A stretch of DNA of 64,000 nucleotides from Grammothele lineata (lineage: Eukaryota > Basidiomycota > Agaricomycetes > Polyporales > Polyporaceae). Positions 32,414 to 64,000 of this stretch are shown piece after piece. Made by a program: the position numbers and the translations under genes. The stretch lies in the NCBI GenBank assembly GCA_002150815.3, contig NDFF03000043.1, forward strand, positions 248,001-312,000, given 5' to 3'. The notes beneath the pieces are model-generated. The model searched no databases, had not been told where the DNA came from, and saw nothing but the letters and a program-made list of their open reading frames with translations. The first letter of the stretch is position 1, and each line of letters begins with the position of its first letter.

Positions 32414-34053
32414 ATGACTTCACACACGTCCCCCTTGGAGAAGGCTGAGGAGTTGACCACCCTCATGCCTGTAGCTCCTCAGGTCTACCCCGCCTCTCAG
32501 GTTCAGATCTATCCCACCGTCTACCCTCACCCTGTGCACGTGAATCCCCAGGACCGCCCGAGGAACGCTCGCAAGCGGCGTTTCTTGCACCTTCTTGCTT
32601 GCACCCTCGTTTTCTTTGGTGCAATTCGCCTCTTCTTCGCCGGCGACATTCGCAACCTGCTCTCGGTGAGTGCTCTGGCTATGACGTCTGTGCATGTCTG
32701 AATCTAACGCTCCGTTGGTTGTCATTAGCGTGACCGTAGCAGCACAGAAACGCGGTCAAGGTCTTACGACCCTTCCAGTTGTGTTGAGACGGTCGCGTGG
32801 TCTAAAGGCGGCGCTTTCAACCGCGAATTTCCCTTCCATTCTTCAACTTCTTTCACCCTTCCGCTGGATGCGACGGAGCTCACCTTCATCCACGACGGCG
32901 CTCTTGCCTATGGCTCTTTCAACGTGTCTCAAGATGCTGTCCTGGGCTCGAACGAGGCTATCGTCGAGGTCGACATATCCTACCGTCATCCCTCTGCGCT
33001 GGACGACGCGACCGTGTGCAAGACGCACACAGATGACAGCTGGGGCCTGGGTATCTTCGTAAGTCTTTCCTATAGCTAATCGGACAGCACATTAATCGTC
33101 TACATTTGCCACACTTAGACTCGGGAGCATCGTCCGCATCATAGTCGCATGCTCCGGCTCGATGTCCGCCTCCGCCTGCCCACCGCCCAACCTAACGCAC
33201 CGCTGAAGATGGGCCACCTGTGGACCGACCTTCCTCTGTTTAAGCACCACCTTCCCGAACTCGCCGACACTGTTCTCCTCAAGCGAATCACACTCCAGGC
33301 AGACAACACGCCCATAACCGTTGAAGTGCGGATGCATGCTTTCGCTGAGTTTCTCTCGCGTTACTGATCCTAGGCCGGTGAAATGTTCATAGTCGCTTGC
33401 CGGTGACTTCATCTCCTTGTCGACGCGTAACGCGGCCATCCACGGGACGTTCAACGCTTCGCGGTCCCTTGTCCTCGAGACCGCGAACGCACCTATCACC
33501 GTGCGCGCCAACCTCCACAACGCCGACGCCAGTAACGAGACCCTCGGCGTCCTCACCACAAGCAATGCGTAAGTCCCTGCATGTCGTGTCATCTTGAACC
33601 CGCTTTGACTCCCGGCATAGCCATATCGACAGCACCTTCGGCCTCTACTCGACTTCCGACACCAACGCAAGCGCGTACCGCGTCTTGACGACGACCGCCA
33701 ACGCTCCCCTCACCCTCCGCTTTGCCGACGCCCCCGTCGACTCGCACCTCACCCTGGACGCACGTACCTCCCACGCACCCGCGCGCGTGACGACGCACGA
33801 GACGTTCGAGGGCGAATTCGACCTCGAGACGTCCATGTTCTTCGTGCCCGAGGTCGCCTGGCCGGGCGGTGTCCCGGACCCCGCGGGCAAGGGCCGCCGC
33901 CGCGTCGTCGACACGAACCAGGTCGGGCGCAGCGTCGTCCGCGGCGGGACGACGTGGGGCCCTGGCGAGGCGAAGGGAAAGGGCAGGATTAGGATCGAGA
34001 CGACTGTCGCGACGCTGAGGCTAAACTTGGGGAAGATCTACGGAGAGGACTAG
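32414..34053 (+). CDS. Single-pass membrane protein with repetitive ectodomain, family member A, 465 aa
   Basis: No characterised function recognised. Exons are 32414-32665, 32729-33058, 33119-33325, 33393-33568 and 33621-34053 (introns 52-67 nt, phases 0,0,0,2). The cytosolic N-terminus is rich in Pro/Tyr/Val and ends in basic RNARKRR; one TM helix follows at about 57-75 (FLHLLACTLVFFGAIRLFF), implying type II (C-out). The ectodomain has SSCVETVAW, SFTLPLDATELTFIHDGALAYGSF, WGLGIF, LETANAPITVRANL, TTANAPLTLRFADAPVDSHL and VPDPAGKGRRR. The recurring TxNAPI strand-turn units look like a beta-solenoid or adhesin-like fold (inference). It is the best complete representative of the family. Confidence 0.85.
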
Positions 34054-34374
34054 GGGAGCCGTGGCAGAGGTTGTGTTTTTCCATTGTTTGCAAGCCGCGC
34101 CCGCACTTTTCTTTCTGGGTTCCTACCGGGTGTCGTATCGTTTCAAGCCGATCGAACTGTTTGATTGGTGCGAGTGAGTTGTGTTGGGCTCTGAGTGTGC
34201 GTTCACGCCGAAAATGGTGTCACACATTGTGCTATTGAACAGTCTAGTGCGACGCCCTTCGAGAATCGGTAGCATTTACGCAAGTATCAACGTGCATATC
34301 TGGGTTCATGACGATGGCATGGAGCTACTACGGAGAACGTCAGTTCGTACAGAAAATGTTAGTGATTTCCCCGA
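34054..34374. other. Short convergent intergenic region
   Basis: 3' flanks of gene A and of the minus-strand F-box gene. Nothing else seen. Confidence 0.5.
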
Positions 34375-35940
34375 TCAGACACGACGGAAACGAATCCAGT
34401 GCCCTGTGTTCGCCCTCTCCCACTCCTTGTCATACGTAAATGCGATGCGCTTAAGCGAAGGTGCATGCTTCTCGTACTCCGAGATCATTGCCCTCTGAGC
34501 GCCGTTGTCTCTATAGAGCGAGGATTTAGCACGGAATGCCACCACTGTCTCCGGCAAGAGGAATGTGTGCAGACGCGGGAGCCGAGGCAATAGTTGCTCT
34601 CCAAGAGACAAAACTTCTTGCTATACATGAGAGGTAGGAATTGAGAAGGTCAGCGCAGGATCCGGACTTGTCGTAGCTGGAGCCGGTTAACATTGAACAC
34701 GCACCTGTGTGGGTACCTTAGAGATGCTAACCAGTAGATACTCCAGACGCGGGAGTTCGGCTGCCATCTCTGCAAGAGCAGCAACATCTATGCTGATCAT
34801 CCCAAGGTGGAGAGTTTTGACGGGCACTCTCGAGTGCTGGAGAGGGGCGAGATCTGAGCGCAGTGCTGCACCTGTCATGTGTTGGATCTCCTCTGTTTGG
34901 AAGGGGTTGAAGTAGGAACGACCCCACTCGTATCCTGCCACGAAGAGTCGTACAGAATGGATAGGTCTCCGGAGAGACACGGGAGTACTCTCAGGGAAAA
35001 AGGAAGGAAGTAGGTTGGTGGGACATGCAAGCTCCTCTAGCAACGGCCATACGCTGCTGTCGATTGACAAGCTTGGTGATGTTTGTCCCTCATGGATATC
35101 GCCGAAGTAGGGCCCGTCGATGAAGAGCGATCGGAGTTGTGTATGTCTCTGTGCCCACGCGCAGTGGATCATGTGCATGTCGATACGAAGCGTCTGGAGG
35201 GCGGGAAGTATGTTCCCCTGATATGTGAGTTCGTCAATGATGTGCTCTGACGGAAGACTTTCATCGAGTAAGTGGAGGGAGGAAAGATGTGAAGAGTTGA
35301 GCAAAAGCAGGGTGCGGAGGAGGGTCGCATGAGTGCAATTGGGGTTTTCAGGCGCCCATAGCATGATGTGTTGTAGACAGGGAGTGAAGCAGGGGAGCGG
35401 ATTTGAAGCGAGGTGGTTGTCGATGAATTCGTCGTGTGATTCAAGCCTGCACTCCGAGAAGATCGAGCGTAGATGGAAGTGTGGGGTGGACATGAGCGCA
35501 TGTACGACCGTGATCGGCGTCACGAAGTCTTCATCGTCGACGATTCGGATTTCGCGCAGATTAACCATATTCTTGATCGTGCCATACACGAAGTCCGGCT
35601 CGACTGGGCCAACCGTCCGATGTGGCCATACACTATTCTTCTCATAGGGATCGTAGGGGGTAAAGCCGAGAACGAGGGTATGAACGAGAGTAGGTACGTT
35701 GCGTTTGAAGGCGTACCATTCTGCGGATGAATTGAACGTCTCAACGAACTCAATCGCAGAGCGATACGATTTGCATGTGAGGTCAACATGGCGATAAAGG
35801 TAAGGTGTCGCGATGATGTTGATGGATCTGGAAACAAGCAGGAACGAAGGAAACGTGTTGGCGCGAATGAATGGGCAGATCTCTCCGAACAGTTCAATCG
35901 GCAGTTTGACACATTGCGCCTCATGGGCCAGGGGCATCAC
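34375..35940 (-). CDS. F-box-like protein, 493 aa, unrelated to the 15-22 kb group
   Basis: Exons are 35940-34705 and 34620-34375, with an 84-nt GTGCGT...TATAG intron in phase 0 (KVPTQ|QEVLSLGEQLLPRL). The N-terminus VKLPIELFGEICPFIRANTF...LLVSRSINIIATPYLYRHVDL is an F-box of the kind common in agaricomycetes. The remainder is leucine-rich with scattered LRR-like strands (LREIRIV, LHHLLD-type turns, LPALQTLRIDM, LRSLFIDG, LPRLEYLLVSISK). It lacks the WARFxxYAxRVREL signature of the other F-box group. It probably serves as an SCF adaptor with unknown substrate. It sits inside the membrane-protein array, in opposite orientation to its neighbours. Confidence 0.82.
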
Positions 35941-36761
35941 GAACGTCCAAACTGTCGTCAGAAACTACTCCTAGCTAATGGGTCAGATAACTTGCACTAA
36001 GCGAAGATATCCCTATAAGTCTGATAGATCGTACCTGATACAACGAGATTTCTATTCCTAGTGGACTCTGAGTAAAGACCACGGTTGTAGACAAGAGTTG
36101 GGACTGTCAAAGAGATATGTTGCTACTGTCACCGTCCTCCGCCCGGGCTTTGTGTGGTATGGTGGCAGCCGGAGGTGTACAAGTTTCGGCGCTTCAGGCT
36201 GGAGGCGCAGTACGTACATGACACAGACCCCGGGCACCGCAGCCGCTGCCTCCCGGACACCGCTGGACCAAGACTACATAGTAAGTACTTACTAAGTTAC
36301 TTTAACGTTACTAATTAAGAGGGACATTGATGTTCTTGCTGGACGTGGGCAACCCGAGGTAATGCGTATCTTTTGTTGAGTCTCGTGTATCTCCAGTATC
36401 ATGGGCTAACCACCACTGTTTGCAATATGAAGTTCTTTGCCACGTATGCTGTTATTTTCCCTTATCTCAACCGTTGTCTTACCAGTCTTCACAACTTCTA
36501 GCGCAGGTCGACCACAAAGTTTCGAGTCCGTTGCTGCGGCATACGTGAACTTAAGTGCCGACTCGATGCCGGCTTGAGTAGTATGGAACCTTGTTCCTGT
36601 TGTATGCACAAGTACACTTCTATCCAGACGATTCCATGCTGCGGCTTCGAAAGGTCTTTATACGCCTCTTTGACTGTTGTGTTTTCAGGCGACTTGGTTG
36701 CGCAGACTCGCCACAACCTCTAGTCCCGGCCCCCTCTACAATCTACCTGAACACCTCGAAG
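35941..36761. other. Intergenic, upstream of family member B
   Basis: Searched for a transmembrane exon for gene B; none found. A strong-looking acceptor (TGTTGTGTTTTCAG, ending 36688) is out of phase with the family intron. A TTTATAC box lies about 100 bp before the ATG at 36762. Confidence 0.45.
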
Positions 36762-38125
36762 ATGAGTAATACACACGCGCAAAGCATACCCATAGTCTGG
36801 GCAACCGACTCGGAGCGTATTCGAGGCGACATTCACTCTTATGCATCGGTATCGTTCCCCGTCAGCGCGTTGGCATCGGACACCTTGAAGTTCCTCGCAC
36901 GAGGAGAGCGGCTAGGCGGAGAGTTTGAGCTCTCTCAGGCCACTCTCAACGAACCTGTGGAGGAAGAGGATGTCGCTGTACAGGTAGACATCGACGCCTT
37001 CTACCAACTCGAAGGTACAATCCACGACGTCGCGCTAGAAGTCGCAGCAGATGCAGCCTACATTTCTCTGATTGTGAGTTACACTGCACTATTTATCATG
37101 TTTATCATCTAACGTCTGCTTTCTATCCAGCGCTCGAGCAGGCGTTCTCTTGATGCATGGCGAAACCAATCTCAGTTGAAGTTCCACATCCATGTTCGTT
37201 TACCAGCACCGGACCCCGTTACACGCATGCCTCTGGCCTTGCATGCCCTCGTCACCGATCTGCCCCTCTTTTCTCATCATATCCGCAACATCGCCGAATA
37301 CTCGATCTTTGACGCAGTCGTTCTGAAAAGCACAAGTTCCCCTATCCGCATTGGGGTACGAGTATCTTTTCTTCCTAGCATCTCCTGCTTACAATGTCTT
37401 TGACGTGCAGTCTCTGAATGCGTACTCCATCGCAGTAGATACGACGGACGGTCCTATCCAAGGGTCGGTCAAGACGCCATCGAAACTCAGCTGCAAGACG
37501 CGCAACGGACCAATCGTTGTCAACGCCATCTTGAGCATTGCACGCAATGAGTCGGCTTCCCTCACTCAGGCGTCGCTTCAGACCATCAACGCGTACGTCT
37601 TACCGTACCTCCCTTATCTTTCGTTCGCTGACTATTATGATGTCGTCATCTAGCCCCATCGAGGCCAACTTCACACTCGCGGAGGCCTCTTCCAACACGC
37701 CTGCAGGAGCGGCCGGCGGGAACAACACAACCCACACAAGCCCGGGAGAGTTCCGCGTGCTGGCACAAACCGTCAACGGCCCTCTCTCCGCCACTTTTGC
37801 TACCTCCGCCTCCGCAGGCCCAGTCGCACGCCTGAGCGCAACGCTCAGCACGCAGAACGGCCCCGCTCGCGTCGAGCTACCCCCAACCTTTGCGGGCACG
37901 TTCGAGCTGCGCGGTTTCCCGTTCCTCCCTCCCGTCTTCACGGAGCGACCCTACGTGCCGAACGCCAGCGGTCGGATGCGCCGCGTCCAGCGGACGGGCG
38001 TTGGCCTCTGGCAGCCGGGGGTCGTATCCGGGAGGGTATGGTGGGAGCCTGCGCGCACGGATGAAAGTCGGGGGAGTACGGTCTCTGTGGTGACGTCGAA
38101 CGCGCCGTTGCGGCTTATATTGTGA
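36762..38125 (+). CDS. Membrane-protein family member B without a transmembrane segment, 396 aa
   Basis: Exons are 36762-37073, 37131-37355, 37411-37592 and 37654-38125 (phases 0,0,2), the same layout as A minus its first exon. Conserved blocks are SFPVSALASDTLKFLARGERLGGEFELSQA, FHIHVRLPAPDPV, LVTDLPLFSHHIRNIAEYSIFD, VDTTDGPIQGSV, TRNGPIVVNAIL and PNASGRMRRVQ, the last a degenerate form of the D-P-A-G-R motif. There is no cytosolic tail or TM helix, the conserved Cys is missing, and no signal peptide is visible. The product is therefore either intracellular or the gene is a 5'-truncated duplicate. All reading frames after the start are intact, which argues against recent decay. Confidence 0.75.
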
Positions 38126-38292
38126 TATCTTAATGATTGACACGAGACCTCCTTGTACCTTCAGTTGGATGTTCGACCGACTGAAACGTTCTCTCCATGT
38201 AATGCACCGTGGTTTACGCCTTCGTAGGTCTCTGCAAACGGGAACAACCAAACAACTAATTACATATACGCGTCTTCGTGCACGCGCATCAC

Positions 38293-40000
38293 TCAATCCG
38301 GATCCGTACCTCCGAGATTCAATCTCAACCGTTTATCTCCCATATCCCGACCAGTAAGAATGACCTTCCCCTTGAGGCTTGGATCCATCCTCTCTCCATC
38401 CTCTTCCCACATCACGCTCTCGTTCAACGTAGTGTCCCCATCAAAGACCGTGCGCACGATACGCTTCCTCCCGCGCCCGGCTGGGTCCTCCACTCCTTCC
38501 GGCACATACACCTCCGGCAGCCTCCACGCCGCGCCCACACCTTTCCTAGCGAGGACGAATGCTCCCTCAAACGTCGGGTGCAACGTTACAGTACCCTCGT
38601 TGGAGATGGTCTGCGCATCAAGCACTAGGCGGGAGTCGGGAGGGGCGTCTGCGAAACCGAGATGGAGCGGCGCGTGTCTGGTCCGTGCTTCTACGGCGAA
38701 TACGCCTTCGGTCGCGTTGGCCGTGGTGGAATAGAGGCCGACGGTCGTGTTCAAGGGTCTGTAAGAGGAGTATTGTGCGTCAGACAGTACAGTCACGTCC
38801 TTGCGGAGGAACGAGTTGAAAAAAAAGGCGTACGCGTTGCTTGTTTCTAGGCGAGCGAAGGTGAGCCGGTCGGCCTCTCTGCCTTGATCTGACCGGGTGG
38901 ACTGGCCGTTGAACAAGTTGACGCGGGCGGAAATTGGTGCGTTCGAAGTTGCCAGTGCCAGCCCAGCTTTCGCGATGAACACGCCGTCGATCGTCGCATT
39001 TTTCGTCGCGAACACGATCAGGGCTGCAGCCAGTGACTTCAACGGCGCAATGATAAGATGACATCACGTCGGGCATGCCGACACTCGAGTGGAATCGACT
39101 TACATCAGCGTGAACGGGTGTCAAGTATGCCTCTGACCAGACACCTGTGAAGTATACAGACTCCGCCAGCGCGTGGAAGTGTTGAGTGAAGAATGGCAAG
39201 CGAATGGCAAGCCAAGACATCTTGACAGGGGAGCCTGGAGTAGCCGGGGCCGGAAGGTGGACATGGATATTGATGTTCAGAGTATGGTCCTGGTCGAATA
39301 CGAGCTTCTTGGGAGTCTTAAGTCCCAATATCCACATTAGCACACACCCAAGGAACAGTTTGAACGCGATAACTCACAAAGATGCCAAGTCCCCAATCTC
39401 TGGCAGCCGGATTAGTACGGCATATTGTCGCATCATCAAAGGCCTTCGGGTCCCGATAGTGCACGTCGACGTCCACTATCACCTCCGTGGAACCGGGCGG
39501 CGCTGTGGACGACATCTCGAAAGAACCGCGAGCGAAAGAGCCCGCGGCGGAGAAGTGCAGCGTCTCAGCGTCGACAGGGAGCTTCAAGGTAGCGTTTCGG
39601 TTATACGAATGTCCCGATCCCCCATCTGGAATTGGTGGAGACCAGTCCAACATGCCGTTGCAGGTCGCAGGCAGGCTAACGACTGGAACTTGGAACGTGA
39701 CGGGGCTCGCGCTGGTCTCGAATGTGCTACGCCACCAAATCCGGGGATCCTGAGATTTGAATGGATCTGTTAACATGATATCTTGAAGAACGTCAAGATG
39801 CTGCTCACCTTTATCCAAAGGCTACGAGTTGCGACTGTAGCGAAGGAGAAGAACAGTAAGCAAATGGGCACAAGCCATACGAGCCACGTATTTGATGCTC
39901 GGGCTTCTAGCCCAGCGACGCCAAGCATGCGACTCGAAGATGCTTTTGTGGAGGTCGGTCCGTCAAGCCTCACATCTTCTGATACACTTTCAGAGTTCAT
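38293..40000 (-). CDS. Single-pass membrane protein, family member C, 481 aa
   Basis: Exons are 40000-39809, 39749-39378, 39316-39104, 39036-38834 and 38758-38293 (introns 58-75 nt, phases 0,0,0,2). Cytosolic tail of about 37 residues, TM at about 38-56 (TWLVWLVPICLLFFSFAT), then ATCNGMLDW, ATLKLPVDAETLHFSAAGSFARGSFEMS, DWGLGIF, INIHVHLPAPA, TKNATIDGVF, LATSNAPISARVNL, HAPLHLGFADAPPDSRL and VEDPAGRGRKR. It matches member A throughout except for a shorter cytosolic tail. The last intron is a multiple of three and could be read through, but the family comparison supports removing it. An upstream in-frame ATG at 40060 exists but adds unconserved sequence. Confidence 0.83.
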
Positions 40001-40398
40001 GACGGTCGGAAGGCAAGACGGCAGGGCAAGTAGTCTTACGCGCCCAGCTTTGAGTAGCATGCAAAGGGAGCGTCCTCGCCATCATGTCCCGCCGGTCTCG
40101 CGCGGCCTCGCTACCTCTAAGGCTAGCGTTTTCGTGATGAGGCACAGTGATGTCAGTTGTCAAAGAAGACAATCAAACAACGGACAAGTCCACGATATAC
40201 AATTGAAACCCATGACGGTCATGTGAAGCATTCAACGTGTGAATTCAACAGAGAGGTCTGAGCGCACTTCAGTATAGAACATCGATACATGTTTACTGAT
40301 TCACGTACCGGATTACCCAGAGTCACACTTACGCATCTGCTATACTGGTACATAAGCATCGGCCACAAGGCGCACATATGTTTTTCATCTCCAGCCTT
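40001..40398. other. Intergenic between members D and C
   Basis: Promoter side of C and 3' flank of D, both on the minus strand. No clear TATA recognised. Confidence 0.45.
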
Positions 40399-41971
40399 TC
40401 AAAGCGACATCACCACAGGCGCGTTCGAGGTCTTGAGGGTAATATGCCCGCCCACCCTCTCCGCCGCACCCTCCTCCCACTCAACGATCCCATGGCGATA
40501 GTTCGTTCCCCCGTTGCTCGTCGAGACGTGACGCTCTCGCCCTTTCCCCGACGGGTCCTTGATCGTGTCGTCGACATGCACTGCCGGCTCCGCATTTGAC
40601 GTAAGAAGCCGGAACTTGCCTTGGAACGTCTCGTGCGCGGATACCGTCACAGGGCGGTTCGACGAACGCACGAAAGCGGTGAGGCGCGATTCGAGCGGGG
40701 CATCGACGAAGGCGAACGAGGCAGGTGCGTTAGAGGTGAATGCCGTCACGTGGAATCGGCCGCCCCAGGATGAATGGGCGGTGGAGTAGAGGCCGACCGT
40801 GGCGTTGATCTGGCTGGAAGAGTAGGAACGTGGTTGGCTGAGGGAGAACTTGCGAGTGCGGAAACACGCTTACCCATTACTCGTGTGTAGAGCGGCCTTC
40901 GTGTATTTATCATCATCATCATTGAAGAGATTGGTACGAGCGACAATCTCCGCGTTCGAGGTCCTGAGTACGAGGGAAGAAGACACGTTGAATGTGCCAT
41001 GTATAGGTTTGTTGTTCGTTTGCACGTGCACGTGGTTTGCTACAATAGACTGTAAGTAGTTCAGTAAGTGGGAAGTCTATGCACCACCGCATCGAACGTA
41101 CATCGATCTGAACTTCGGCGTTGGCAGATGTGATCGTGACTTCATTGAAGGAGACTGTCTGCTCCAGAGCGCGAAGTCGATGCTCAAAGTTTGACATCTC
41201 CATCCTCAGCGCCTCGAACTTCACCGGCGATTCTCCGCTGGAGGGAGGCAGACGGATGTTGATATCAAAGTGTACCGTACGCGCTAGGGCCTTAGCAAGG
41301 GGCGAGCCAAGGGTCTACCCAATACATCGTGAGCAAGGGGACATTGAGGAACATAGACCACTCACGGCAATGTTCAAACCCCATTCTCTGTCAGACGGAT
41401 GCGTGCCGCATACGACTAGGTTGTCCAATGAGCCTTCGTGCTGATATGTCACGGCAATGTCCACAACCACATGCTGCATGCTGCTATGGCACGTTTGTGA
41501 GACCGTAACAGATCCAGTGGAGAAGGCGTCGTCGGAGAGGAAAGACAGAACATCCGCAGGAAGTGGCAGCTCCAGGGATGTTTGGGCATGGAATGCGCCC
41601 TCATTGATAACGGCGCTAGTCACATTCATGTCCCACACAGCACTGTTGAAGCAGCTGGGCTGGAAAGAGCGATGTGTTGTCTCCTTCCGCGACCGCTGAA
41701 GTAATCGATCAATGGCGAGCCGACGGCTGAGAACACGTACACTCACCATGTCGCAAAATTTGAATCCTGGTCCCCGGTGGAAATACTCATACACGGTCAT
41801 GAGCACGAGCATACACCCGGTCATGTAGAGGCAGATGCGCTTGCCGGTCCTACGTAACGCGGCATCTCGGTGTTCGTAGGCCTCATGGACTGTCCACGAC
41901 GGGGGAGGCGCATCTACTGGCGGCGCCTTCTCAGGATCAAGTTTTTGGAGGGGGGAATGGGCGATGACCAT
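40399..41971 (-). CDS. Single-pass membrane protein, family member D, 452 aa
   Basis: Exons are 41971-41747, 41695-41366, 41314-41102, 41049-40874 and 40813-40399 (introns 51-60 nt, phases 0,0,0,2). Cytosolic tail rich in Pro and charged residues ending RRTGKR, TM at about 46-61 (ICLYMTGCMLVLMTVYEYF), then PSCFNSAVW, SLELPLPADVLSFLSDDAFSTGS, EWGLNIA, FDINIRLPP, VQTNNKPIHGTF, LRTSNAEIVARTNLF, FTSNAPASFAFVDAPLESRL and IKDPSGKGRER. Start chosen at 41971 (MVIAHSPLQKLDP) because the open frame further upstream (to 42268) has no family character. Confidence 0.83.
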
Positions 41972-42694: not shown

Positions 42695-44408
42695 CTATTC
42701 GCTCACCGTCCCAGCCAGGTTCAAACGGAGCGTACTGACGGACGTCTTCACAGTCACCGAACTGCCCCCTCCCGGCGTGCTTCCTTCTCTCTGTCCCTCA
42801 CGCCCCCACACCACGCTCCCATTAACCGCGCCCCAGCCCCCCTCCGACATCTCTACAACGAGCGGCCTCTCCCTCCCTGCCGGGTCCCCTGGATGGGCCG
42901 GCCAGCGCACCTCGGGCTCGAAGAGCCCCCCAGGGGTCGTGGTGAGTGCGAACTTGCCCTCGTACGTAGGAGGTAGGGACACGCGCGCGGGCCCGAGGGA
43001 TGTCTGCGCAGTGATACCCAGGAAGGAGTCTAGGGGCATGTCCGCGACCGCGAGCTCGAGCGGGGCGCGTCTCGTCTGTGCTGTGACCTCGAAGAAGGCG
43101 TGGGGACGGTGTATAGGAGGACCGGTCATTTCGTCGCTCGAGGTGAGCTCATGGGGAGGGTTGGAGTTGGAGGAGAGGTTGAAGGTGGCTTGGATCTGGC
43201 TGCGTCGACGCGGACGTATGAGCGATCAATATATACTGTTTGAAGAGGCCACGTACCCCTTTCTTGTCCAGAGGTTGGCCCACGTAAACGGGCGATGGGG
43301 TAACACTGTTTCCAGACCATTGACGAGATTGCCATGAATAGTGATAGGAGCGTTCTTGGTCGTTAGGGTGAGCGTAGCGCCAACGGTGAAAATACCATCG
43401 ATGGGCGCGTCGGTCGTCGCGACGTAGACTTCATTTGCAGCTACAGACTGTGAACATTCAGAGTCAGCGTCATCAAGCAGAGAAACGGGGATCCGGCGGC
43501 GAAGGACTCACGCGAGACGTGAGAGGCGCATGGTCCCCCTGTATCCCGATCGACTGAAAGTGCACGGCATCCTCGAGCTCGTGCAGCCTGTGAGAGAAAT
43601 GCGGGAGCTTCGTGTACAGCCGGCCTAGTCGCAGAGGCGGCGCGCCCTGTGTAACGGGTGCGGGGAGTCGGACGTGGATGTTGAAGCGCAGTGGCTGCCG
43701 CCCTTCCCAAGGGTGTGGCCAGTACGGAGTCTATCCCGAAGAGACGAGCATTAGACCCATGGTGGAGGACTTCAAGTTGTAGAGTAGGAGACTAGGACTC
43801 ACAAAGATTTTCATCCCCCACGTTGAGAGGATTAGCGAATGGGATCGGCACGTTGTCAGGCCTCTGGCGTCCTTCGAATCCGAATAGACCAACTCGACGT
43901 CCACGACGGCCTCAGTGGAGCCAGCAGGGGCTGTCGCCGAGACTTCAAACAGGCCGTGTGCGTAGTCGCCTTCGGCGCGGAAGTCCAGCGCCCCCAGCCA
44001 TGTTCCGTTGAACAGCGGGAGCGTGAACGTTGTCGTCAAGCGGTGAGGCCCCGGAGAGTCCTCCCCTGCTCCTCCAGCGATTCGAGTCCAGTTCAAGCTG
44101 TCGTGACAGGACGACAGATCGTGTTTCGTAGGCCTGTGGTGTTCATGCGGAATCTGGGAGATGAACTCCGTCAGCTGCGGCCAGTAAACGAGGGACCATG
44201 ATGAAGACGCCCTCACCAACCATGGCGGAAGAATATACGACGTGGGGAAGAAGAGCCATAGAATCCAGAGGAAGATGAAAACATATAGCAATAAGCGCCA
44301 GAGCGGACGTCGCTGCGGCCGTACAGGCTCGCTGGAGACCACTCGTGGTGATTCCCCGAGGAGGGGAGTGGTCTCCTCCGCCGGCGCCTTCTTGTCTTGC
44401 TGCTGCAT
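42695..44408 (-). CDS. Single-pass membrane protein, family member E, 506 aa
   Basis: Exons are 44408-43803, 43730-43512, 43447-43257 and 43199-42695 (introns 57-72 nt, phases 0,0,2). The first family intron is missing: cytosolic tail, TM and first ectodomain block are one exon. Tail ends RPQRRPLWR, TM at about 37-54 (LLLYVFIFLWILWLFF), followed by SSCHDSLNW, TFTLPLFNGTWLGALDFRAEGDYAHGLFEVS, TWGMKIF, FNIHVRLPAPVTQG, TTDAPIDGIF, LTTKNAPITIHGNL, TRRAPLELAVADMPLDSFL and PGDPAGRERPL. An acidic dileucine-like TTPLLGE at about 14-20 could be a sorting signal (inference). Confidence 0.83.
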
Positions 44409-44816: not shown

Positions 44817-46577
44817 TCAGAGCTGCAGCGTCGCGGGCCTATTCGAGCTCCTCAGCGTCACGCTTCCCTTCCCTCCCTCTCCGCCCCACGACACTACGCC
44901 CGAGATATGCCTCGGCGACCGCTCAGTCTGCTTGAACGTCCTCGTCCTCCCGCGCCCCGCCGGGTCAGCCTCCCCCGCTTGGAAACCGACGTCCGCGTGC
45001 GCGTTGGCGGCGTGCACGTGGAACTCGCCCTCGAACGAAGGCGACAAATGTGCAGTCGCAACCGCGTTCGTTGTTGTCCCCGTCAGAGTGAGGGTGCTGT
45101 CGATAGACTGGTAGGGAATCTGCAGCTCGAGCGCGCGGTTTGTTGTGTTGGCAGAGACGGTGAAGGAGCCGCCTGTTCCGTCAGAGGAGGTGGAGACGAG
45201 GGAAACTATCGAATGAATCAAGCTGTTGGGGGACTGGAATCAGCGGCTGAAGGTTGGTAGAGGAGAGGAACATCGGCGTACCCCTCCGCAGATCGTAGGG
45301 ACATTTTGGTCGGGCTCGAACTAACAGCGTCGTGATAGAGCACGGCCGAAGCCTCAATATTCCCGTTGGCAGTTTCTAGCTGAAGATCCTTCGATACGTT
45401 GAAAGTACCTCCAATGGCGGCGTTCGTCGTGACGATTGTTGCGCTCTCTGCACTCAGGTACTATGAAGGCAGAGTTAGCTTCAGCAAGCCCATGCTACGA
45501 GATTACGGAACGCACGTCGGTATCGATACGTTGATTTTGGGAGCGGAGGATGATGTTGCCAAACGTGACCTGGCCTGCCATCTGACGAGGAAGGGTATGT
45601 TTGAAATCGGGCAAATTCGTCTCGAATGACTTGACGTGTAGTGGCATGCCGTGCAAAGCCGGGAACTGGACTTCAATACGGAAGCCTCCATCTTCAGCAT
45701 GCCAATGTGAAGGCGTCTACGCATATTGTCAGTCGAACGCGACGCATATATTAGCACCTTGATACGCACTTGTATACCAATACCTTGCTCGCCCGGGGCG
45801 CGTTCCAACACGCATATGGTCGTCAAAGATAACGCAGTGGAAGATTGAAAGATGGGGTGAATGTTGACGCGGATGAAGCCATCAGGTATGGAGGAGTCCT
45901 TGACTGGCGTAAAGTGAACAGATCCATGGGCCAGCGATCCTCTACTGAACAAATAGAGCGCTTTTGAGGACAGGGGCAACGGGATTGAGAAGGGGGCGAG
46001 GTATGGTGCACTGCCCAGACTCGCGTTGATATCCGCTGGGTAGCATTTCTTGACTTCGCCATCTTTGCGCGTTGGCCATGGTACCTGTCATGTACAATGA
46101 GCGACCCGAAACTTTGCGAAAGATCAAACTTCGGCTCACCACCGTGCTTGGCCTACCACCACTCCACTTGACAGATACAATCGTGGTTCGGATAAACCAC
46201 CCCACGAAAAAGTAGATGAGAACCGCTGTGAAGAAGGCCTTGAAAAACCGTTTTGGAGCCCGTTCTCCTCTTCGGATGAGTAATGGTGGTTGTGGTGGGG
46301 GCTGTATAGGGGAACCGACGAGTGGTGTACGTGCGCTAATGGCTTGTGTCTGAGCCTCGATGTCGACGTTTTGGTACACATTGTATGGCTGGTACGCGAC
46401 CGTAGAGTGGCCGCCTGGAGGTGGGGAAGCCGTACCGTACGAAGGGGATGGCACAGGCTCGCTGCGGCCAGGGTATGCCGGCGGTGGGGGAATGTGGTCT
46501 TCCTCAGGGACCTCGGACGGCGGGCCCTCTGCGCGCGTCTTCGCGGGCGAGGCGGGGGAGTCGTCGGGGAGGATCAT
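44817..46577 (-). CDS. Single-pass membrane protein, family member F, 512 aa
   Basis: Exons are 46577-46140, 46084-45770, 45716-45516, 45460-45282 and 45222-44817 (introns 53-59 nt, phases 0,0,0,2). It has the longest cytosolic tail of the family (about 110 residues, Pro/Tyr-rich with several P-x-Y and PPPAY-type motifs), basic RRGERAPKR, and a TM at about 111-129 (FFKAFFTAVLIYFFVGWFI). The ectodomain is more diverged: KKCYPADINAS in place of C-x6-W, SIPLPLSSKALYLFSRGSLAHGSVHF, TTNAAIGGTF, LETANGNIEASAVL, TTNRALELQIP and EADPAGRGRTR. The Pro/Tyr motifs resemble WW-domain or NEDD4-type ligase docking sites (inference). Divergently transcribed from LSM4. Confidence 0.8.
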
Positions 46578-55449: not shown

Positions 55450-57367
55450 ATGGCGCCATATCATGTCGACGAAGCTACTGGCTCAGACGAGACAGGCAAG
55501 GGCACCTCCGAGCAGCCTTACCAGACCCTCGCATTTGCCGTATACACCCATCCTGATGGTCCCTTCGTAATTCGCAAAGACGCGTTGGGGACGTACGAAG
55601 AGCCCACTCAGTCTGCGCTTAAGAAGGCCAAAAAGGGTGCAGACGGTATCGAGAAGAAGCGCAAGAAGGCGGAGGAGCTCGCTGAGCGCGAGGCGAAGGA
55701 GCAGGCGGCCGCGCGCGAGCGGAGGGAGAAGAAGCTCGAAGAGAGCAAGAAGATCGTGCTCACTCAGGATCCCAGTCTCCCTGCCGCGGTCAAGGTGCGT
55801 ACATATGGCCACGCTCTGCTCGCGTGCTCACACTGAATTGCTACTGTTGCGGCATATTCCATATCCATCTCTTCGTAGTCGAAGATCGGAAACCTCACCA
55901 CTCTTAGGTCAAAACGTATCCGCACTTCCGGATGGGTTCACCGCCTACGCGACCAGAAGGAGATCATCTTCATCGTTCTTCGCGACGGTACTGGTTACCT
56001 CCAATGCGTTCTCTCAGGGCAGGTCGCGCAGACGTATGAGGCGCTCACTCTCACGCTCGAGTCCACCATCGAAGTCCACGGCTTGCTCAAAGAAGTGCCT
56101 GAAGGACAGACGGCTCCTGGCGGACATGAACTCGTGGTTGACTATTGGAAGGTCCTTGGAGCAGCCCCGGGCGGTGAAGACGCCTTCACCAACCGCCTGA
56201 ACGAAGTGAGTTCTGTCTGTTGGCAGTCATATGACGTCGCTCATCGCGTTCGGCCAGAAATCCGACCCGTCGATCCAAGCCGATCTCCGGCATTTGGTCC
56301 TCCGTGGCGAGACCTCCTCCGCTGTCCTCAAGCTTCGCTCCGCACTGCTCAGCGCGTTCCGCAAGACGCTCGTCTCCCACAACCTGCTCGAAGTTACGCC
56401 TCCCTGCCTGGTGCAGACGCAGGTCGAGGGTGGCGCGACGCTCTTCAAGCTCGATTACTACGGGCAGCCCGCGTTCCTCACACAGAGCTCGCAACTCTAC
56501 CTCGAGACGTGCCTGCCCTCGCTCGGCGACGTCTTCTGCGTGCAGGAGTCGTTCCGTGCCGAGAACTCGCACACGCGCCGACACCTGTCCGAGTACACGC
56601 ATCTCGAGGGCGAGCTCGCATTCATCACCTTCGACGACCTCATGACCCACCTCGAGGCCATCATCTGCGACACCGTCGACACCATCCTCGCTGACCCCGC
56701 CTCTGCCGCCCTCGTGCGCCAGCTCAACCCCGACTTCCAGCCTCCCGCAAGGCCGTTCATGCGCATTTCGTACGTCGACGCGATCAAGTGGCTCAACGAG
56801 CACGGCATCAAGCACGAGGCCGAGGACGCGGACGGGAACGTGATCAAGGACGAGCAGGGCAACCCCGTCATGGTCGAGCACAAGGTCGGGGACGACATCG
56901 CCGAGGCCGCGGAGCGCCGCATGACGGACATCCTCGCGCGCCCCGTGTTCCTGTACGGGTTCCCGACGGAGCTCAAGGCGTTCTACATGAAGAAGATGCC
57001 CAAGGCGGAGGGCGAGCCCGAGGGCGGCCCTACGTTCACCGAGAGCTGCGACTTGCTCATGCCTGGGGTTGGCGAGATCGTTGGCGGGTCCATGAGGATT
57101 GCGGACGAGGCGGAGCTCCTGGCTGCGTACAAGCGCGAGGGGATTGACGCATCCCCGTACTACTGGTTCACGGACCAGCGCAAGTACGGCACGTGCGAGC
57201 ACGGCGGGTATGGTCTTGGTGTTGAGGTACGTCTTGCATTTTGTGCGTGTGCGCTGAGCAGGTGCTCATACCTCTTTCTCTAGCGTTTCTTGGCGTGGCT
57301 GGCGAAACGGTACACGGTCCGCGAATGCTCGCTCTACCCGCGCTGGCCCGGACGCGCGACCCCGTAA
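55450..57367 (+). CDS. DED81: Cytosolic asparaginyl-tRNA synthetase, 574 aa
   Basis: Class IIb aminoacyl-tRNA synthetase charging tRNA-Asn. Exons are 55450-55794, 55879-56205, 56258-57226 and 57284-57367 (introns 52-84 nt). The N-terminal extension typical of eukaryotic AsnRS comes first (YHVDEATGSDETGKGTSEQP, then a charged helix rich in Lys/Glu). The OB-fold anticodon-binding domain follows (IRTSGWVHRLRDQKEIIFIV, GYLQCVLSG). Then come the catalytic domain with motif 2 FRAENSHTRRHLSEYTHLE, GPTFTESCDLLMPGVGEIVGG, and motif 3 GYGLGVE|RFLAWLAKRYTVREC, ending RWPGRATP as in other AsnRS. Length and all motifs are complete. Confidence 0.95.
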
Positions 57368-57559
57368 GCGCGAGAAGAGAACAAGTGAAACGGCGAGGTG
57401 TATTCCTAGGTGTATAGATGCACGGGGATCAAGTATCTTCTGTCATGTAGTCGCGTCCAAACTGCTGTGCTGTAGCGTCCAATAAATTATCGCCATTCCC
57501 ATCCCTTGTAGGCCACAACTCCATCCGCATCCCTACAGCGCATTCTGGCGCAAGGTCAA

Positions 57560-59641
57560 TCAAGCGGACATCGCGACATAGGTGTTGAAGTTGTACGTCC
57601 GCGGGCGCTCCTCGACGACAAACCCTTCCCGCTCCGGAGCGCACTCCGCGACGACAGCTCCTTGCCGGATCATCGTCGCGCACATGCTCTCTCCCGCGAC
57701 GAGCGGGTGCGCGAGTTTCGTGAGGCCCTCGCGGACCGCATATTTCTTGACTGCGCCGTGCCGACCCGTCGAGAGGTGCACCTCCGCTGGCGCGGTCGCG
57801 AGCACGACTACCCAGAACTTGTCGTCCGTCTACCACTTCGCGTCAATCATATACATGTCTCTCGATGACAGCGTCATGATTATTCAAAAACGCACCAACT
57901 GCCACCCCTCCGGTCGCCCCGCCCTATCCTCGGAGGCCTGAGCGTCACGCAGGTGCGGGCGGCTCCACATGAAGATACGATCCCGTTCGATGGGCGGGTA
58001 GGAGCCGTCCTTGAACGCGCGCGCAAAGTCGCGCGTGAGCTCGAGCCACGGGGTATGCGGGAAGCCGTTCACCCATGCTTCGGAATTGGGCTGCGCGCCT
58101 TTGATGGGCCCGATGTAGTGCGACTCGCCGTAGTCTATGCAGGGATATCGGGAGACATTTGAGGGACGACGTCAGAGAGGTGAAGAGGGTGCGGAGAGAC
58201 GTACCGTTCCACGAGATGATTTGAACGATGTCGATGTCGTCGCGCGCGGCAATGAGCTGTTCCCACCGGCGGACGTACAGCCAGTCGTCGCCGCGGTAGA
58301 TCCACTGTGCAGTTGATGGGTAAGATAGCTTAGCGCATCATTTGGACCAGAGCCTTACGTTCTTGTTCCACGAGTCTTCACCGTAATGCTGGCGTGAGGC
58401 AGATCTAAGTTTCATGAGCTGGTAGCTGTATGCGTGCGCGACGTACCGTGAAGAACCATGGTGAGACTGCTGCCATGAACGTCCGTCCGCGCAGGTAGTG
58501 GATGTGGTGGCGGTCAGTATCGAGTTCCGGATGTTCGATATCTCTCCTGGGCGAACTAGCTTTCAGATGGATTGGCCATCCACCATTCCACTGCACAGCG
58601 TCAAAGGCGAGTGATGATGGAAGGATAGATCAATGCGTACATTGAAGTAGCCATCCATTGAGTGAATGCGGGGATAACGTCGGGGATCGATGAAAAAGGA
58701 CAGTATAAGATGTATCTTGAAGGGTCACGGACCCGTGTTAGAAAGATGAAAACGTAGGATCACGATGTCGTGACGCACAGGAGCAATCTCTTGCAGGCAT
58801 TCCTTGGCATATGTCCACGCCTCCTCGAGGGTCGGCTTTCCGAAGAGGCTGTCTTGTCCTGCAAACGTAGACACTAGGATCCCGCCTTTGTATACAAGCT
58901 GGTTGGGATGTCTCCCGAAGGTGGAGACATAATCACGTAGTAGCAGTACGTCCTCCGGAGACTTGCTAGGCATCGCACTTATATGCAGAGAGATGTCAGA
59001 AGCTTGAACGTGAGCAGAAACGACGCGCTGGGCTTACTTCATGTCAAAACTAAGAAAGAGCTTGAATGGTAGGCCGGACTCGCGAGCAGCCGTATAGCAC
59101 TTGGACGCAGATTCCTTTTGCCAAGGCTCTGGACCAACATTGAGAGCAAAGGCATCGCTAAAAAGCATTCGGTGCGTAAAACACGTGGGTAAGAGCTGGT
59201 GTTAAGCCTTAACTCACATTCCATACGAATGAGCAAGTGTAATATCTTCCCTCCAGTCTTGGACCGTATATGGCTAACGAGAGAACGCTATTCAACCCTC
59301 CGGTTCATAGGACGTATTGCGACTTAGGCAGGCAACCCACATATGTATTTCCTACCATAAAGCTGATTGAACAAGATAGTTAGTATATGTAGGTTCACGA
59401 GAGCCTGGCGGTTTGTGACTCAACTGGGCGACCACGAGCTTCGCCGTCTGAGGGCTGCGTGGAGGCTGGAAGCAGTCAAATTCGATTACCGGGTTACATA
59501 TGGGACTCTAAGAACCTGAAAATTCGTGAGACGCGGGCATCACAGGTTGAGATGAGATATGTCCATGCTCACTGCGCTAACGATGTCGTTCCGACTGGGA
59601 GAACTCACTTGTCCCACTGCAACGTCGGTGAACTCTGCCAT
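57560..59641 (-). CDS. GH71 alpha-1,3-glucanase (mutanase)-like protein, about 436 aa, 12 exons
   Basis: Glycoside hydrolase family 71 cleaves alpha-1,3-glucan, a fungal wall polymer. Exons (minus): 59641-59609, 59447-59425, 59362-59341, 59273-59218, 59157-59038, 58977-58779, 58715-58641, 58590-58447, 58388-58359, 58304-58205, 58134-57896 and 57829-57560; the total is in frame. Family blocks: KLVVAHFMVGNTYPYTVQDW, AHSYGIDAFALNVGPEPWQ, LFLSFDM, SFFIDPRRYPRIHSMDGYFN, FMAAVSPWFFTHYGEDSWNK, SWNDYGESHYIGP, then a C-terminal beta-rich part. The first exon is the weakest call (an alternative acceptor at 59465), and no signal peptide is visible, unlike most secreted GH71 enzymes. It may be intracellular, or a signal exon was missed. 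Confidence 0.85.
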
Positions 59642-60225
59642 TCTAAGGATGTTTATAGCAACCTCGATTATTTCTACGAGTGCTGCGACAATCGAAATAG
59701 AGCGTCGCCTCCCAGATGTTGACGGTCAAGCGCAAAGGATTGGACAACTTGGAACCAAGGCTCTTGACAACTTGTTGAAATCGACCCCGGGCCGAGGCCC
59801 TGAATTCTGTAATCAACCCCCTCCTCCTCCTCCTCTGTTACCTTCGTTTAAGCGCCTGCATCTCCCCTGCATTTACCACCATCCCAGTACCATCCCGAAC
59901 TCGCCCTCCTCCTCCGGGCTCACGCGGCCATCCTTTCACTTGCCTTCAGCCTCCTCTTCGCCGCCAAATTTCTGAGGAAGATGCGACGTCGTCTCGGCTG
60001 ATATCGCAGAATACGAATACGGACGCGCTGCGGTCAGTCCGCAACTGACGTCGTATTCCGGAGTCCGCAGCCTGTCAATCCAAAAGCCCCAGGCCTATCA
60101 CGAGCCACAGGATGGAATCCCCTGGCTTGCATGGCAGTTAGAGTTTGAGCAATGCTGATATGATATAAGGGTGTGGACGTACACTTGGTGAGCTCGCCTC
60201 TCTCTGACCCGCACGTCCACTCACC
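59642..60225. other. Divergent promoter region, GH71 and member G
   Basis: Contains a CCT-repeat tract near 59819-59837 and the TATA box of member G. No gene seen. Confidence 0.5.
60164..60169 (+). promoter_or_regulatory. TATA box of membrane-family gene G
   Basis: TATAAG 57 bp before the ATG at 60226, matching the spacing in genes A and E. Confidence 0.5.
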
Positions 60226-61811
60226 ATGTCCTTAGTCAATCCCGAAAAGCGTCTCGTCGCAGAGTCGTACTCCGTCCTTCCGCGCCATGTCGTTGTGGAT
60301 TCACGCATTTCAATCGCAAGATTTGTGCAACCTGAACCTGCTTCAAGCGCATTCAAACGTCGTTTCATACGTCTTCTCACCGGAGCGACTGTCCTTTTTG
60401 GCCTTCTCTTCTGGTTCGTCGACAGTCGGGCTTTCTTTGGGCTGACGGTACGCACCTTCTGAGTCTGAGACATGCCAGTTGCTAATGCGTGGATGATAGC
60501 ATCGCTATTGGCGACACGGAGGCGACGGTATATCACAGTGCGCGGATGAGCTCACCTTTTCGCGGCCATATGGCAATAGGACCTCCGACCAGCAATATCA
60601 CATGCAATTGACCACCCATCTTCCCATCGACGCACACGAGCTCTACTTCCTCGCTGAAGGTTCTCTTGCCCATGGCACCTTTGAAGTCTCACGTACTCTC
60701 CCCGCGGATTCCACCCAGGCCCGAGTAGATGCAGATGTCTATTACCAACACCCTGATGCCCTCTCGGATATAACGATGCGCCGAATTCATCACGACGATA
60801 CATGGGGATTAGGAATATTCGTACGTTCACATTACTTACGTTTGCACTCCGAGTCCCGCTTACTGGTCGTCCATAGACTCCCAAATGGCGAACGCCTTCC
60901 AACGACCGTAAGCTGCATCTCAATGTCCACTTGCACCTTCCTGCCGGTTCCGAACTCGAGTCCGCACCTCTCAAGATGGGGTGGCTTACGACGAAGCTGC
61001 CCTTCTTCGTACATCACTTCCACCACCTCGAGAACGTGTATTTCGAATATCTCTGGCTGCAGGCAGACATCACGCCCATCATAGCTAACGTGAGTGCATA
61101 GCCAATATCGAGCCTCTACCGTAACGCACAGACTAAAACGTGCACTAGGCTGTTTCCGCCAACTACGTATCGATAAGGACGAGTAACGCACCCATTCACG
61201 GCACATTCAACACCTCTTCCCTTCTCCGCCTCGAGACTGCGAACGCACCAATCTCCGTCCGCGCGAACCTCATGAATGGCGCTACTGACCCCTCTGGCAT
61301 GGCCACCGCTGCAATCCTCACCACTGCCAACGCGTATGTCCCCTCGTCCGAGCATATGATCCCACTGAGCCTTACGCGCACGTACAGGAATATCGATGCC
61401 AGCATCGGTCTCTACACGAACACGACCTCAGGCACCAAGGGCAGCTACCGCGTCGACGCGCGCACCGCGAACGCCCCACTCGTGCTTGCGTTCGTCGACG
61501 CCCCTGTCGACTCGCACGTCTCCGTGGAGGCAAGCACCTCGTTTACCCCCGCACACGTCACGCTACACCCGACGTTCGAGGGCGCGTTTGACGTCCGCAC
61601 GACCCCCTTCACTTCCGCTGCCGAGGTCGACTGGGAGAAGGATACGGAAGATCCCGCAGGACGTGAGCGAGAGCGTGTTGTGAAGTTCTGGGAGGTGCGG
61701 AGGGGCCACGTTTCTGGGGTGACGGCGTGGAATGACACGGATGCGGTGGAGAAGGGGGACATTCGGGTGGCGACCTCGTTCTCCAAGGCCAGCATTTACA
61801 TTAGAGCGTGA
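60226..61811 (+). CDS. Single-pass membrane protein, family member G, 454 aa
   Basis: Exons are 60226-60447, 60500-60820, 60877-61089, 61149-61333 and 61388-61811 (introns 52-59 nt, phases 0,0,0,2), the canonical family layout. Cytosolic tail ending AFKRR, TM at about 48-65 (IRLLTGATVLFGLLFWFV), then SQCADELTF, QLTTHLPIDAHELYFLAEGSLAHGTFEVS, TWGLGIF, LHLNVHLHLPAG, VSIRTSNAPIHGTF, LETANAPISVRANL, TANAPLVLAFVDAPVDSHV and TEDPAGRERER. Closest in sequence to member A, although 26 kb away and separated by the housekeeping block. Confidence 0.85.
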
Positions 61812-62157
61812 AGCATATGATGTCGCCTTCTCAGTGCAGAAGTCCAGTGAATTGTACATTATTCAAGGTAGTTCTTGCAGTAGTGGTTAGATACCATTCA
61901 CTCTGAATTACCTGTGTAAAGCCCGCACGATTTGCCTGGGAAAATCTGGTGCTGTCCACTTAGCTTTGAGGAATCTATGGCTGCGACATTGACGATGGCC
62001 GTTTTCACCAGGGGGCCCGACATGCTCCTGTTGCTGCGTAAGCGCCCAACTCTTGCCTACGCGCGTCGCGTCGCGTCGCGTCACGGTAGACCGGTTGGCC
62101 AGCCACACTCGTCTACGACCCGCCGTCCGGGCCTGCTAGCTTTGTGCTGGGCTCGAC
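61812..62157. other. Intergenic
   Basis: Includes a GCGTCGCGTCGCGTCGCGTC run near 62066-62085. No gene seen. Confidence 0.45.
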
Positions 62158-62954
62158 ATGTCCTCTCATGTTACTCTGAGACCACCCGCCCCGCAGTTCT
62201 TCGCTCTCCCTGCCAAACACAGGGACACTCTCATCGAATATCTGTCGCGGCCCCAACACAGCGAGCACTTCGCTGCGGACCCGAAGCTACAAGAAGCCAT
62301 TGAGCTCTTCAAACTGGAGCTTTCTCGCCCTTTGGTAGCTTCAACCTCACGTCCGACTTCTGCCTTTGCGGCTGCCAAATTGTCTGCCCCCGCGTCGCGT
62401 CCTCGACGCGTAAAAAGAGTCAAGGAGGAGCCTTGTGTCAATAATGTAAGTCCTGCCATAAACATTTGGACGCGTTCGATGAGTGAACACGGCTTTTGTA
62501 CAAGGATGATACATCCAGTCCCATTCTATACCCCCTGGCCAATCATTCCGGTGAACAGGCCGTTATGATCCTTCCAAGCACGCAGCCAAAAGCTGCTGCC
62601 CGGTTCCTGAACTCCAAGACCGGAAAGCTCTCGAAACGCGTTCTCGCGGAGGCTCCCGCTGCGTATGAACTAGCCCAACCGGGTTCTTCACGTGTTGGTC
62701 TAGACTCCTCAGAGTCTCACCGGTCTATGACGCTTTACTGGCGTCCAACACTCATGCCGGCCCCCACAAAACCTGATGGAGTGTTGGCGCGTACACAGCA
62801 CATCTCCAAAAATGTCTCCATAACCGTACCCATGAGGGATGCCATTGAGATGGAGCCCAAGGATGTAGAGATTGCAGACGCAACAGACGTCTTTGAGGAT
62901 GAAGGGTCTGACGGTGCCAAATCAGAAGATGAGGCTGAAATGCTTCTGAGATGA
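62158..62954 (+). CDS. Hypothetical protein, 245 aa
   Basis: Two exons, 62158-62445 and 62505-62954, with a 59-nt GTAAGT...ACAAG intron in phase 0. I recognise no domain. The N-terminus (PPAPQFFALPAKHRDTLIEYLSR...AIELFKLELSRP) could form one or two helices. A basic patch RPRRVKRVKEEP resembles a nuclear localisation signal next to a sumoylation-like VKEE. The C-terminus is strongly acidic (DVEIADATDVFEDEGSDGAKSEDEAEMLL). A nuclear, partly disordered protein is a reasonable guess only. It separates family members G and H. Confidence 0.62.
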
Positions 62955-63552
62955 GTTTGTTGAGGTCAACTTGCATCGGCCTCCCCTTCCGAATACCACT
63001 GTGCGTCGTCGTTCTGGGGAGTTTGTTACTGGTGCAGAAGCGAGTGGTCCTTGAGGAGTTTTGAATGGTACTACTTCGATTCCTGATCAAAAAGTTTTAG
63101 TGGCATTGCATCCTGCGAGATGAATCCTCAAAATGGCCGAAACATTGGTCAATATGCATTTTGCCTCGTCGAATCCTAAACGTCACTGCAATTCGCTTGT
63201 CAATTATTCTGACTCTTTATAGAAGTTCTTGCTCCATCACAGGATCACAGTCCGATCACAGGGAGGAACAGTGAGTTCCGTCTACTAGCTTTCTCATTGC
63301 CTCACGGAACACTCACCGCCGCAATCTAGGATGTCCACTATATACCATGCGGCAACTCAAGAATTGACCATTCGCGGCGCTCTAGCCGGCACTCTGGGCT
63401 TCAAGGCGCCCCGTGTAATATGCCCAGCCTGTGGTCCGGCCGGTTCAAACGTGATTCCAAACGGACGCTAGCTCACGTCATGCAGTGAACTCAACCTCGG
63501 TATCTTGAATGAGACACACACCCCACTGTCTCTCTCCTTTCAACTATCCGCA
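62955..63552. other. Intergenic upstream of member H
   Basis: AT-richer stretch; no gene or repeat recognised. Confidence 0.45.
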
Positions 63553-64000
63553 ATGCACTGCCCACTCTTCGCTCATGCAGAAGTCAACAAACCACTCCCT
63601 CCTGTCCCTCTAGGACACCGTCGACCTGTGGATGGGTTAATTCAACGATCCTCTCGTTGCGCTTTCATGACTAGTCTGCGCAAGCGATGGTGTTATTTCG
63701 TAACACGCACTTTACTAGTCGGCACGGCGTTATTTACGCTCTATTCGAGCGGTCTCCGACCGGCTATATTGGTAAGTATATATATTCTACCTCAGTTTAT
63801 CTTGCGATTTGACATGCTCCCAACAGTCTCAGCTCGCACTCAGAATACAGTCGGCCGCGTCGGCTCCATGCCAAGAGGGCGCCATATGGACCAAATCTGC
63901 TGTGCAAGACGAGAGGACCGGCGCGTTTCGCGCCAACACGTCCTTCGTGATCCCTCCGTCAGCGACTGAGCTATCTTTCCTCGCCCTATTTACAGAAGGC
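63553..64000 (+). CDS. Single-pass membrane protein, family member H (partial, 3' end beyond window)
   Basis: Exons are 63553-63771 and 63827-64000 (continuing), with a 55-nt GTAAGT...CAACAG intron in phase 0 at the family position right after the TM. The cytosolic tail of about 45 residues ends SLRKRW, with TM at about 46-64 (YFVTRTLLVGTALFTLYSS), then APCQEGAIWTKSAV (the Cys-x6-Trp element) and SFVIPPSATELSFLALFTEG, aligning with member A's SFTLPLDATELTFIHDGA. It shows that the array continues past the window. Confidence 0.78.

What the first reader, a model, noticed from the sequence alone, without database searches (positions are those of the whole stretch)
32414..64000. Eight-member tandem family of type II membrane proteins with repetitive, probably beta-solenoid ectodomains
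Members A-H share order and spacing of features: cytosolic tail, basic stop, single TM, a Cys about six residues before Trp, an LP-x3-x-L-F-x3-G block, WGLGIF, two TxNAPI strand-turn units and D-P-A-G-R-x-R. Intron phases (0,0,0,2) and exon lengths are nearly invariant, so these are tandem duplicates, but the cytosolic tails differ completely (37 to 110 residues). Variable intracellular tails on a conserved surface module suggest a diversified sensing, adhesion or self-recognition set. I know of no characterised function for this architecture.
Basis: partly seen in the sequence, partly recalled or inferred. Interest (0 to 1): 0.85.

Follow-up and report, generated by a model that had tools for sequence, protein, structure and literature searches.

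The report
Mushroom Toastrack membrane proteins, tandem array
A mushroom-type fungal genome carries a row of related single-pass membrane proteins whose outer domain has a fold known mostly from bacteria (Toastrack); one long-conserved member keeps an internal motif of the kind that binds a ubiquitin ligase, and most of the duplicated copies have lost it.

Summary
The array is real. Members A-G and the start of H lie in the window; H ends and I-K follow beyond it. The ectodomain is not unknown: it is the fungal DUF7330 family (PF24016), and profile searches, Pfam hits of homologs and an AlphaFold model of a homolog indicate a Toastrack (DUF4097-type) right-handed beta-helix. B lacks a TM exon and the conserved Cys pair; H's TM is weak. 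'Tails differ completely' is only partly right. F is an old Polyporales-wide ortholog with a conserved tail (MILPDD.P.SP.K ... PPPAYPG ... RF). A and two copies elsewhere in the genome share a second conserved tail (RPRNAR-type). C, D, E, G, H, I, J and K have tails unrelated to these and to each other. Homolog tails carry PPxY in 38 of 53 (shuffle mean 6.3) and in 28 of 28 of a second, partly dependent set; PPxY is a WW-domain ligand, and one locus here combines WW and HECT (Rsp5/Nedd4-type). Best mechanism: a type II Toastrack protein whose ancestral tail recruits Rsp5, as adaptor or regulated cargo in membrane-protein sorting; array copies shed that link. Rsp5 binding, topology and function are inferred. 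Self-recognition is neither supported nor excluded.

The parts
32414..34053 (+). Member A: exons 32414-32665, 32729-33058, 33119-33325, 33393-33568, 33621-34053; 465 aa, TM near aa 57-75, Toastrack/DUF7330 ectodomain
   Evidence: spliced model; clade with C,E,G,I,J,K
32552..32584 (+). Juxtamembrane tail motif DRPRNARKRRF of A, similar in copies at C41:386k and C76 and in Polyporales homologs
   Evidence: tail alignments z 7.0-16.0 against those six tails
36762..38125 (+). Member B: exons 36762-37073, 37131-37355, 37411-37592, 37654-38125; ectodomain only, no TM exon found, Cys pair absent
38293..40000 (-). Member C: exons 39809-40000, 39378-39749, 39104-39316, 38834-39036, 38293-38758; TM, tail of its own
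40399..41971 (-). Member D: exons 41747-41971, 41366-41695, 41102-41314, 40874-41049, 40399-40813; passes the DUF7330 cut-off (28 vs 27 bits)
42695..44408 (-). Member E: exons 44217-44408, 43803-44153, 43512-43730, 43305-43447, 42695-43199
44817..46577 (-). Member F: exons 46140-46577, 45770-46084, 45516-45716, 45282-45460, 44817-45222; Polyporales-wide ortholog with conserved cytosolic tail
46473..46484 (-). PPAY (PY/WW-ligand motif) in the cytosolic tail of F
   Evidence: and sequence; PPxY also in 28 of 28 tails of the homologs with a detected TM
60226..61811 (+). Member G: exons 60226-60447, 60500-60820, 60877-61089, 61149-61333, 61388-61811; second conserved Cys absent
63553..64000 (+). 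Member H, start (exon 63553-63771, exon 63827 onward); gene continues to 65058 beyond the window; weak TM

Best explanation
These are fungal DUF7330 proteins: single-pass type II membrane proteins with a disordered cytosolic tail, one TM helix and a lumenal or extracellular Toastrack beta-helix braced by one conserved Cys pair. In the ancestral form (member F and its orthologs) the tail carries PPxY. I propose that it recruits the genome's Rsp5/Nedd4-type ligase through its WW domains, so that the protein works as a transmembrane Rsp5 adaptor (the Toastrack face binds partner or cargo membrane proteins) or as a receptor whose level is set by Rsp5-dependent endocytosis and vacuolar sorting. In this genome the gene multiplied beside F and at other places; most array copies lost PPxY and replaced the tail, keeping the binding domain while cutting the ligase link, so they would stabilise or compete for the same partners, or serve new ones. 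Shown by computation: family, fold of a homolog, conserved Cys pair, PPxY conservation, its absence in most array copies, one locus with WW and HECT. Inferred: topology, disulfide, Rsp5 binding, adaptor role, partners, role of the array.
Confidence: 0.42

Rival explanations
1. One reading: a diversified surface sensing, adhesion or self/non-self recognition set, with variable tails coupling to different outputs.
Against: Pfam scans of whole members showed no domain in the tails; signalling motifs other than [PL]PxY were not searched. Paralogs at 28-43% identity to G do not look like recent allelic diversification; relaxed constraint after duplication explains divergent tails as well. Nothing population-level could be tested.
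Confidence: 0.15
2. Envelope or cell-wall stress platform like bacterial LiaF/LiaG: the Toastrack sheets assemble sensing complexes at the membrane, and PPxY only sets the protein's own turnover. (Not exclusive of the best explanation.)
For: Homology and fold; the PSP paper proposes Toastrack sheets as protein-docking surfaces and links Toastrack proteins to membrane-stress operons (PMC11237479, passages read).
Against: Gene neighbours give no hint of a stress system, though only a few were identified, and the bacterial domain is argued in that paper to be intracellular.
Confidence: 0.25
3. Opposite topology: Toastrack cytosolic as proposed for bacteria, N-terminal tail outside.
For: Published inference for bacteria (PMC11237479, passages); sequons not enriched; three of seven window members lack the expected charge bias.
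Against: A PPxY motif this conserved needs the cytosol to meet WW domains; Cys pair in 59 of 63 homologs and absent in the TM-less copy B; basic residues precede the TM in most tails.
Confidence: 0.12
4. The array copies are mostly decaying duplicates without selected function; only F and perhaps A, N386 and M76 matter. (Not exclusive of the best explanation for F.)
For: Loss of PPxY and tail similarity, B without TM or Cys pair, G with one Cys lost, H with a weak TM.
Against: Stop-free models of 396-512 aa could be built for all nine copies printed (the models were chosen to be stop-free), and fifteen alignment columns are invariant across the nine.
Confidence: 0.2

Closest known systems
DUF7330 family (Pfam PF24016), fungal
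   Same: Same domain by Pfam in 49 of 63 homologs; several are named 'DUF7330 domain-containing protein' by a source
   Different: A, F and G score below the curated cut-off; DUF7330 matches at C146 show no evident TM in the frames read
Toastrack domain (DUF4097/DUF2807/DUF2154; LiaF, LiaG), mSystems 2024 PMC11237479
   Same: Right-handed beta-helix fold; profile and Pfam similarity of homologs; often C-terminal to a TM segment
   Different: Here a type II single-pass protein, probably lumenal/extracellular with a Cys pair, and a PPxY tail; the term 'fung' has no occurrence in the main text of that paper, which gives human FAM185A as a eukaryotic example (supplements not searched)
Transmembrane Rsp5/Nedd4 adaptors: yeast Bsd2, Tre1/2, Ear1, Ssh4, possibly Rcr1/2; insect Comm; vertebrate PRRG, Shisa-like
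   Same: Membrane protein with cytosolic PPxY/LPxY; binding to Rsp5 or Nedd4 is reported for several (passages in PMC2810449 and PMC5578492)
   Different: Domains were not compared with these proteins; Rsp5 binding is untested here

Membership tests
DUF7330 (PF24016) | Profile match above the curated cut-off (27 bits) | tested here: inconclusive
   D 28.0 passes; F 24.8, A 11.7 and G 17.6 do not; scores of B, C, E, H, I are not shown singly, but 7 of 9 match at E<=1 with D best. In the genome search C76 reaches 27.4 with neighbours. Homologs P0001 33.3 and P0006 29.1 pass, P0002 26.8 and P0003 20.4 do not
Toastrack / DUF4097 | Sequence profile similarity | tested here: met
   Met among homologs, not window members: 8 of 63 at E<=0.01, P0060 over the cut-off; reverse search finds twelve PF13349 proteins. 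No A1 member matched PF13349 at E<=1
[quoted passage not shown]
Toastrack / DUF4097 | Intracellular location proposed for bacteria | not testable with these tools
   Cys pair, charge and PPxY suggest the opposite here
Transmembrane Rsp5 adaptor | Cytosolic PPxY or LPxY motif | tested here: inconclusive
   Present in F and N386, absent in A, C, D, E, G, I, J, K, M76; H was below the TM cut-off there and its tail as read has none. Homologs 38 of 53 and 28 of 28
Transmembrane Rsp5 adaptor | Physical binding to Rsp5 WW domains and effect on cargo | not testable with these tools
   Only the presence of a locus with WW and HECT matches was shown
Self-recognition / allorecognition gene set | High polymorphism or presence/absence between strains | not testable with these tools
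   One genome only; no relatives held

The most novel reading that the evidence does not exclude
Mushroom-forming fungi have a eukaryotic branch of the Toastrack fold turned to the outside of the membrane and wired to Rsp5 by a PPxY tail: a class of transmembrane ligase adaptors. Polyporales have made tandem sets of ligase-free versions (PPxY lost, ectodomain kept) that act as antagonists or decoys protecting partner surface proteins from turnover, possibly in fusion or confrontation between individuals.
Probability: 0.13. Interest if true: 0.78.

Novelty: new variant of a known kind. Interest (0 to 1): 0.5.

Why it matters
It turns an unnamed fungal surface family into a testable hypothesis: the fold is tied to a bacterial membrane-stress domain, and a short conserved motif predicts one kind of partner, Rsp5/Nedd4. 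The array gives natural copies with and without that motif on related ectodomains, a ready comparison for what the ligase link does. In the held library, searches for 'DUF7330' and 'PF24016' found no paper; 'DUF4097' with 'fungi' listed one, on Streptomyces antibiotics (listing only); 'Toastrack' listed four.

Tried and rejected
Solved structures by sequence: A1 gave two matches at E 0.56-0.64, treated as chance; A3 gave none at E<=1. Sequon enrichment as evidence of lumenal location: failed, fewer than shuffles; one column, residue 287 of P0001, has N-x-S/T in 37 of 63. One recent common origin of all eight: rejected for F. B has the longest window branch (2.01) and no starred set, so it was left out. 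Checking that the Cys pair is close in the model: not possible, no coordinates were laid. dN/dS: not run; paralogs are far diverged and no strain data are held. A literature search on beta-helix type II proteins and Agaricomycetes gave nothing relevant in its listing of four. L003, fetched upstream, was not analysed apart from the genome-wide searches.

Limits of the counts: homolog searches scored only about 8000 candidates each, so species counts are lower bounds. The 53 tails come from 63 rows; 10 were dropped for no TM at the hydropathy cut-off or a tail under 15 residues. The 28 come from 29 new proteins; P0115 was dropped. The second set is not independent: its query alignment A4 included tails with PPxY, and many rows are Trametes orthologs. 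The wish to root on Exidia, Serendipita and Rhizoctonia failed, as these were not one side of a branch.

Full report
Setting. The window is C41:248001-312000 of a 41.8 Mb genome. The nearest named homologs are from Polyporales, so it is probably a polypore; the species was not identified.

Gene models. I rebuilt A to H and found that H continues past the window and that I, J and K follow it. Nine models were printed, 396-512 aa, stop-free by choice. Phases 0,0,0,2 were imposed when choosing models; when one junction at a time was freed, slightly better alternatives (1-20 points) appeared in 10 of 11 copies. There is no cDNA, so boundaries are provisional. A genome-wide search with part of G gave 23 matches, which I group into 13 loci: the 11 cluster members, one copy at C41:386 kb (N386) and one at C76:247 kb (M76) (models). 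The DUF7330 profile adds two places on C146; there the frames read show a PPPPY-bearing N-terminal stretch and no evident TM at one of them (not modelled).

Topology. The PSP paper argues that bacterial Toastrack is intracellular (passages). Here I infer the opposite. Cys102 and Cys182 of P0001 are both kept in 59 of 63 homologs (three have a gap and one a Ser at the first site) and in 11 of 13 genome copies: B lacks both and G lacks the second. B is also the copy without a TM. The N side of the TM is more basic on average, 3.0 against 1.4, with N>C in 53 of 81, N<C in 20 and 8 ties; among the seven window members with a TM, C, D and G do not fit. Sequons are not enriched. The inference is reasonable but not proven.

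Tails. For C, D, E, G, H, I, J and K that holds: no pair of them exceeds z 4.5 and none resembles the nine reference tails (z up to 3.0). But A, N386 and M76 share a tail with Cerioporus, Earliella, Dichomitus and Ganoderma homologs (A z 7.0-16.0), and F shares one with a Trametes and a Cubamyces ortholog (z 13.1 and 14.1; 4.3 with Mycena). In homolog tails PPxY occurs in 38 of 53; with prolines held fixed and other residues shuffled the mean is 6.3 and the maximum of 1000 is 15; the next PPxX in excess is PPxG, 11 against 6.5. A further search gave 28 of 28 with PPxY (shuffle mean 2.8, maximum 11), a set related to its query and possibly drawn partly by tail words. Own copies with PPxY are F and N386 only (11 counted; H, under the TM cut-off there, has none as read).

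Evolution. In a tree of 64 ectodomains without B, F joins nine F-type Polyporales homologs (100/99), all with PPxY. N386, D+H, M76, the A clade and homologs from Ganoderma, Daedaleopsis, Fomes, Earliella, Dichomitus, Cerioporus, Lentinus and Polyporus form a second clade of 28 (100/99). A, C, E, G, I, J and K form one group (98/93; 98/98). PPxY needs at least 9 changes of state. F-type and array-type homologs lie close in other genomes by locus tag: GSI_04423 and GSI_04430 in Ganoderma sinense; V8D89_001047, 001054 and 001075 in G. adspersum, which has two more array-type copies on other contigs (names). This suggests that the array grew beside the F-type gene; gene maps of those genomes were not seen.

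Mechanism. Rsp5 has three WW domains that recognise PPXY or LPXY, and membrane adaptors Bsd2, Tre1/2, Ear1, Ssh4 and possibly Rcr1/2 are said to contain such motifs (PMC2810449, passages). Comm, Rcr1/2, PRRG and Shisa-like proteins are compared as short TM proteins with L/PPxY motifs in PMC5578492 (passages), which also notes that Rsp5 or Nedd4 binding is not needed for every activity of Rcr1 and Comm. In this genome one locus, C84:56.6-58.5 kb, combines three WW matches with a HECT match; other WW and other HECT matches exist. I therefore propose that F is a transmembrane Rsp5 adaptor or Rsp5-regulated receptor and that most array copies lack this link. Every step from binding onward is inference.

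Verdict. The fold is known; the combination with a PPxY tail in fungi is a new variant, with function unproven.

Noticed in passing
window 9816-10329 and 11244-11757: Two 514-nt arms of a 100% complementary inverted repeat, 914 nt apart; the same reading frames appear on both strands. Recent foldback, mobile-element remnant or assembly artefact not decided.
   Followed up: partly
window 30376-31284 -: Microbial-type PARG (PF10021, E 1.4e-42), a single open frame.
   Followed up: partly
window 392-1624, 18024-19499, 20279-21748, 34687-35940: F-box/LRR-like genes scattered through the window; Pfam matches are below cut-off, and absent for 34687-35940.
   Followed up: no
L027, genome C146:127645-130947: DUF7330 match without an evident TM; frames read there hold MIIVNDTTPP and, in another frame, PPPPY, like F-type tails. 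Soluble relatives may share the tail motifs; not modelled.
   Followed up: partly
P0104 and P0105, Trametes cinnabarina scf184985.g4 and g5: F-type homologs with consecutive gene numbers in another species: the F-type gene may also duplicate in tandem.
   Followed up: no
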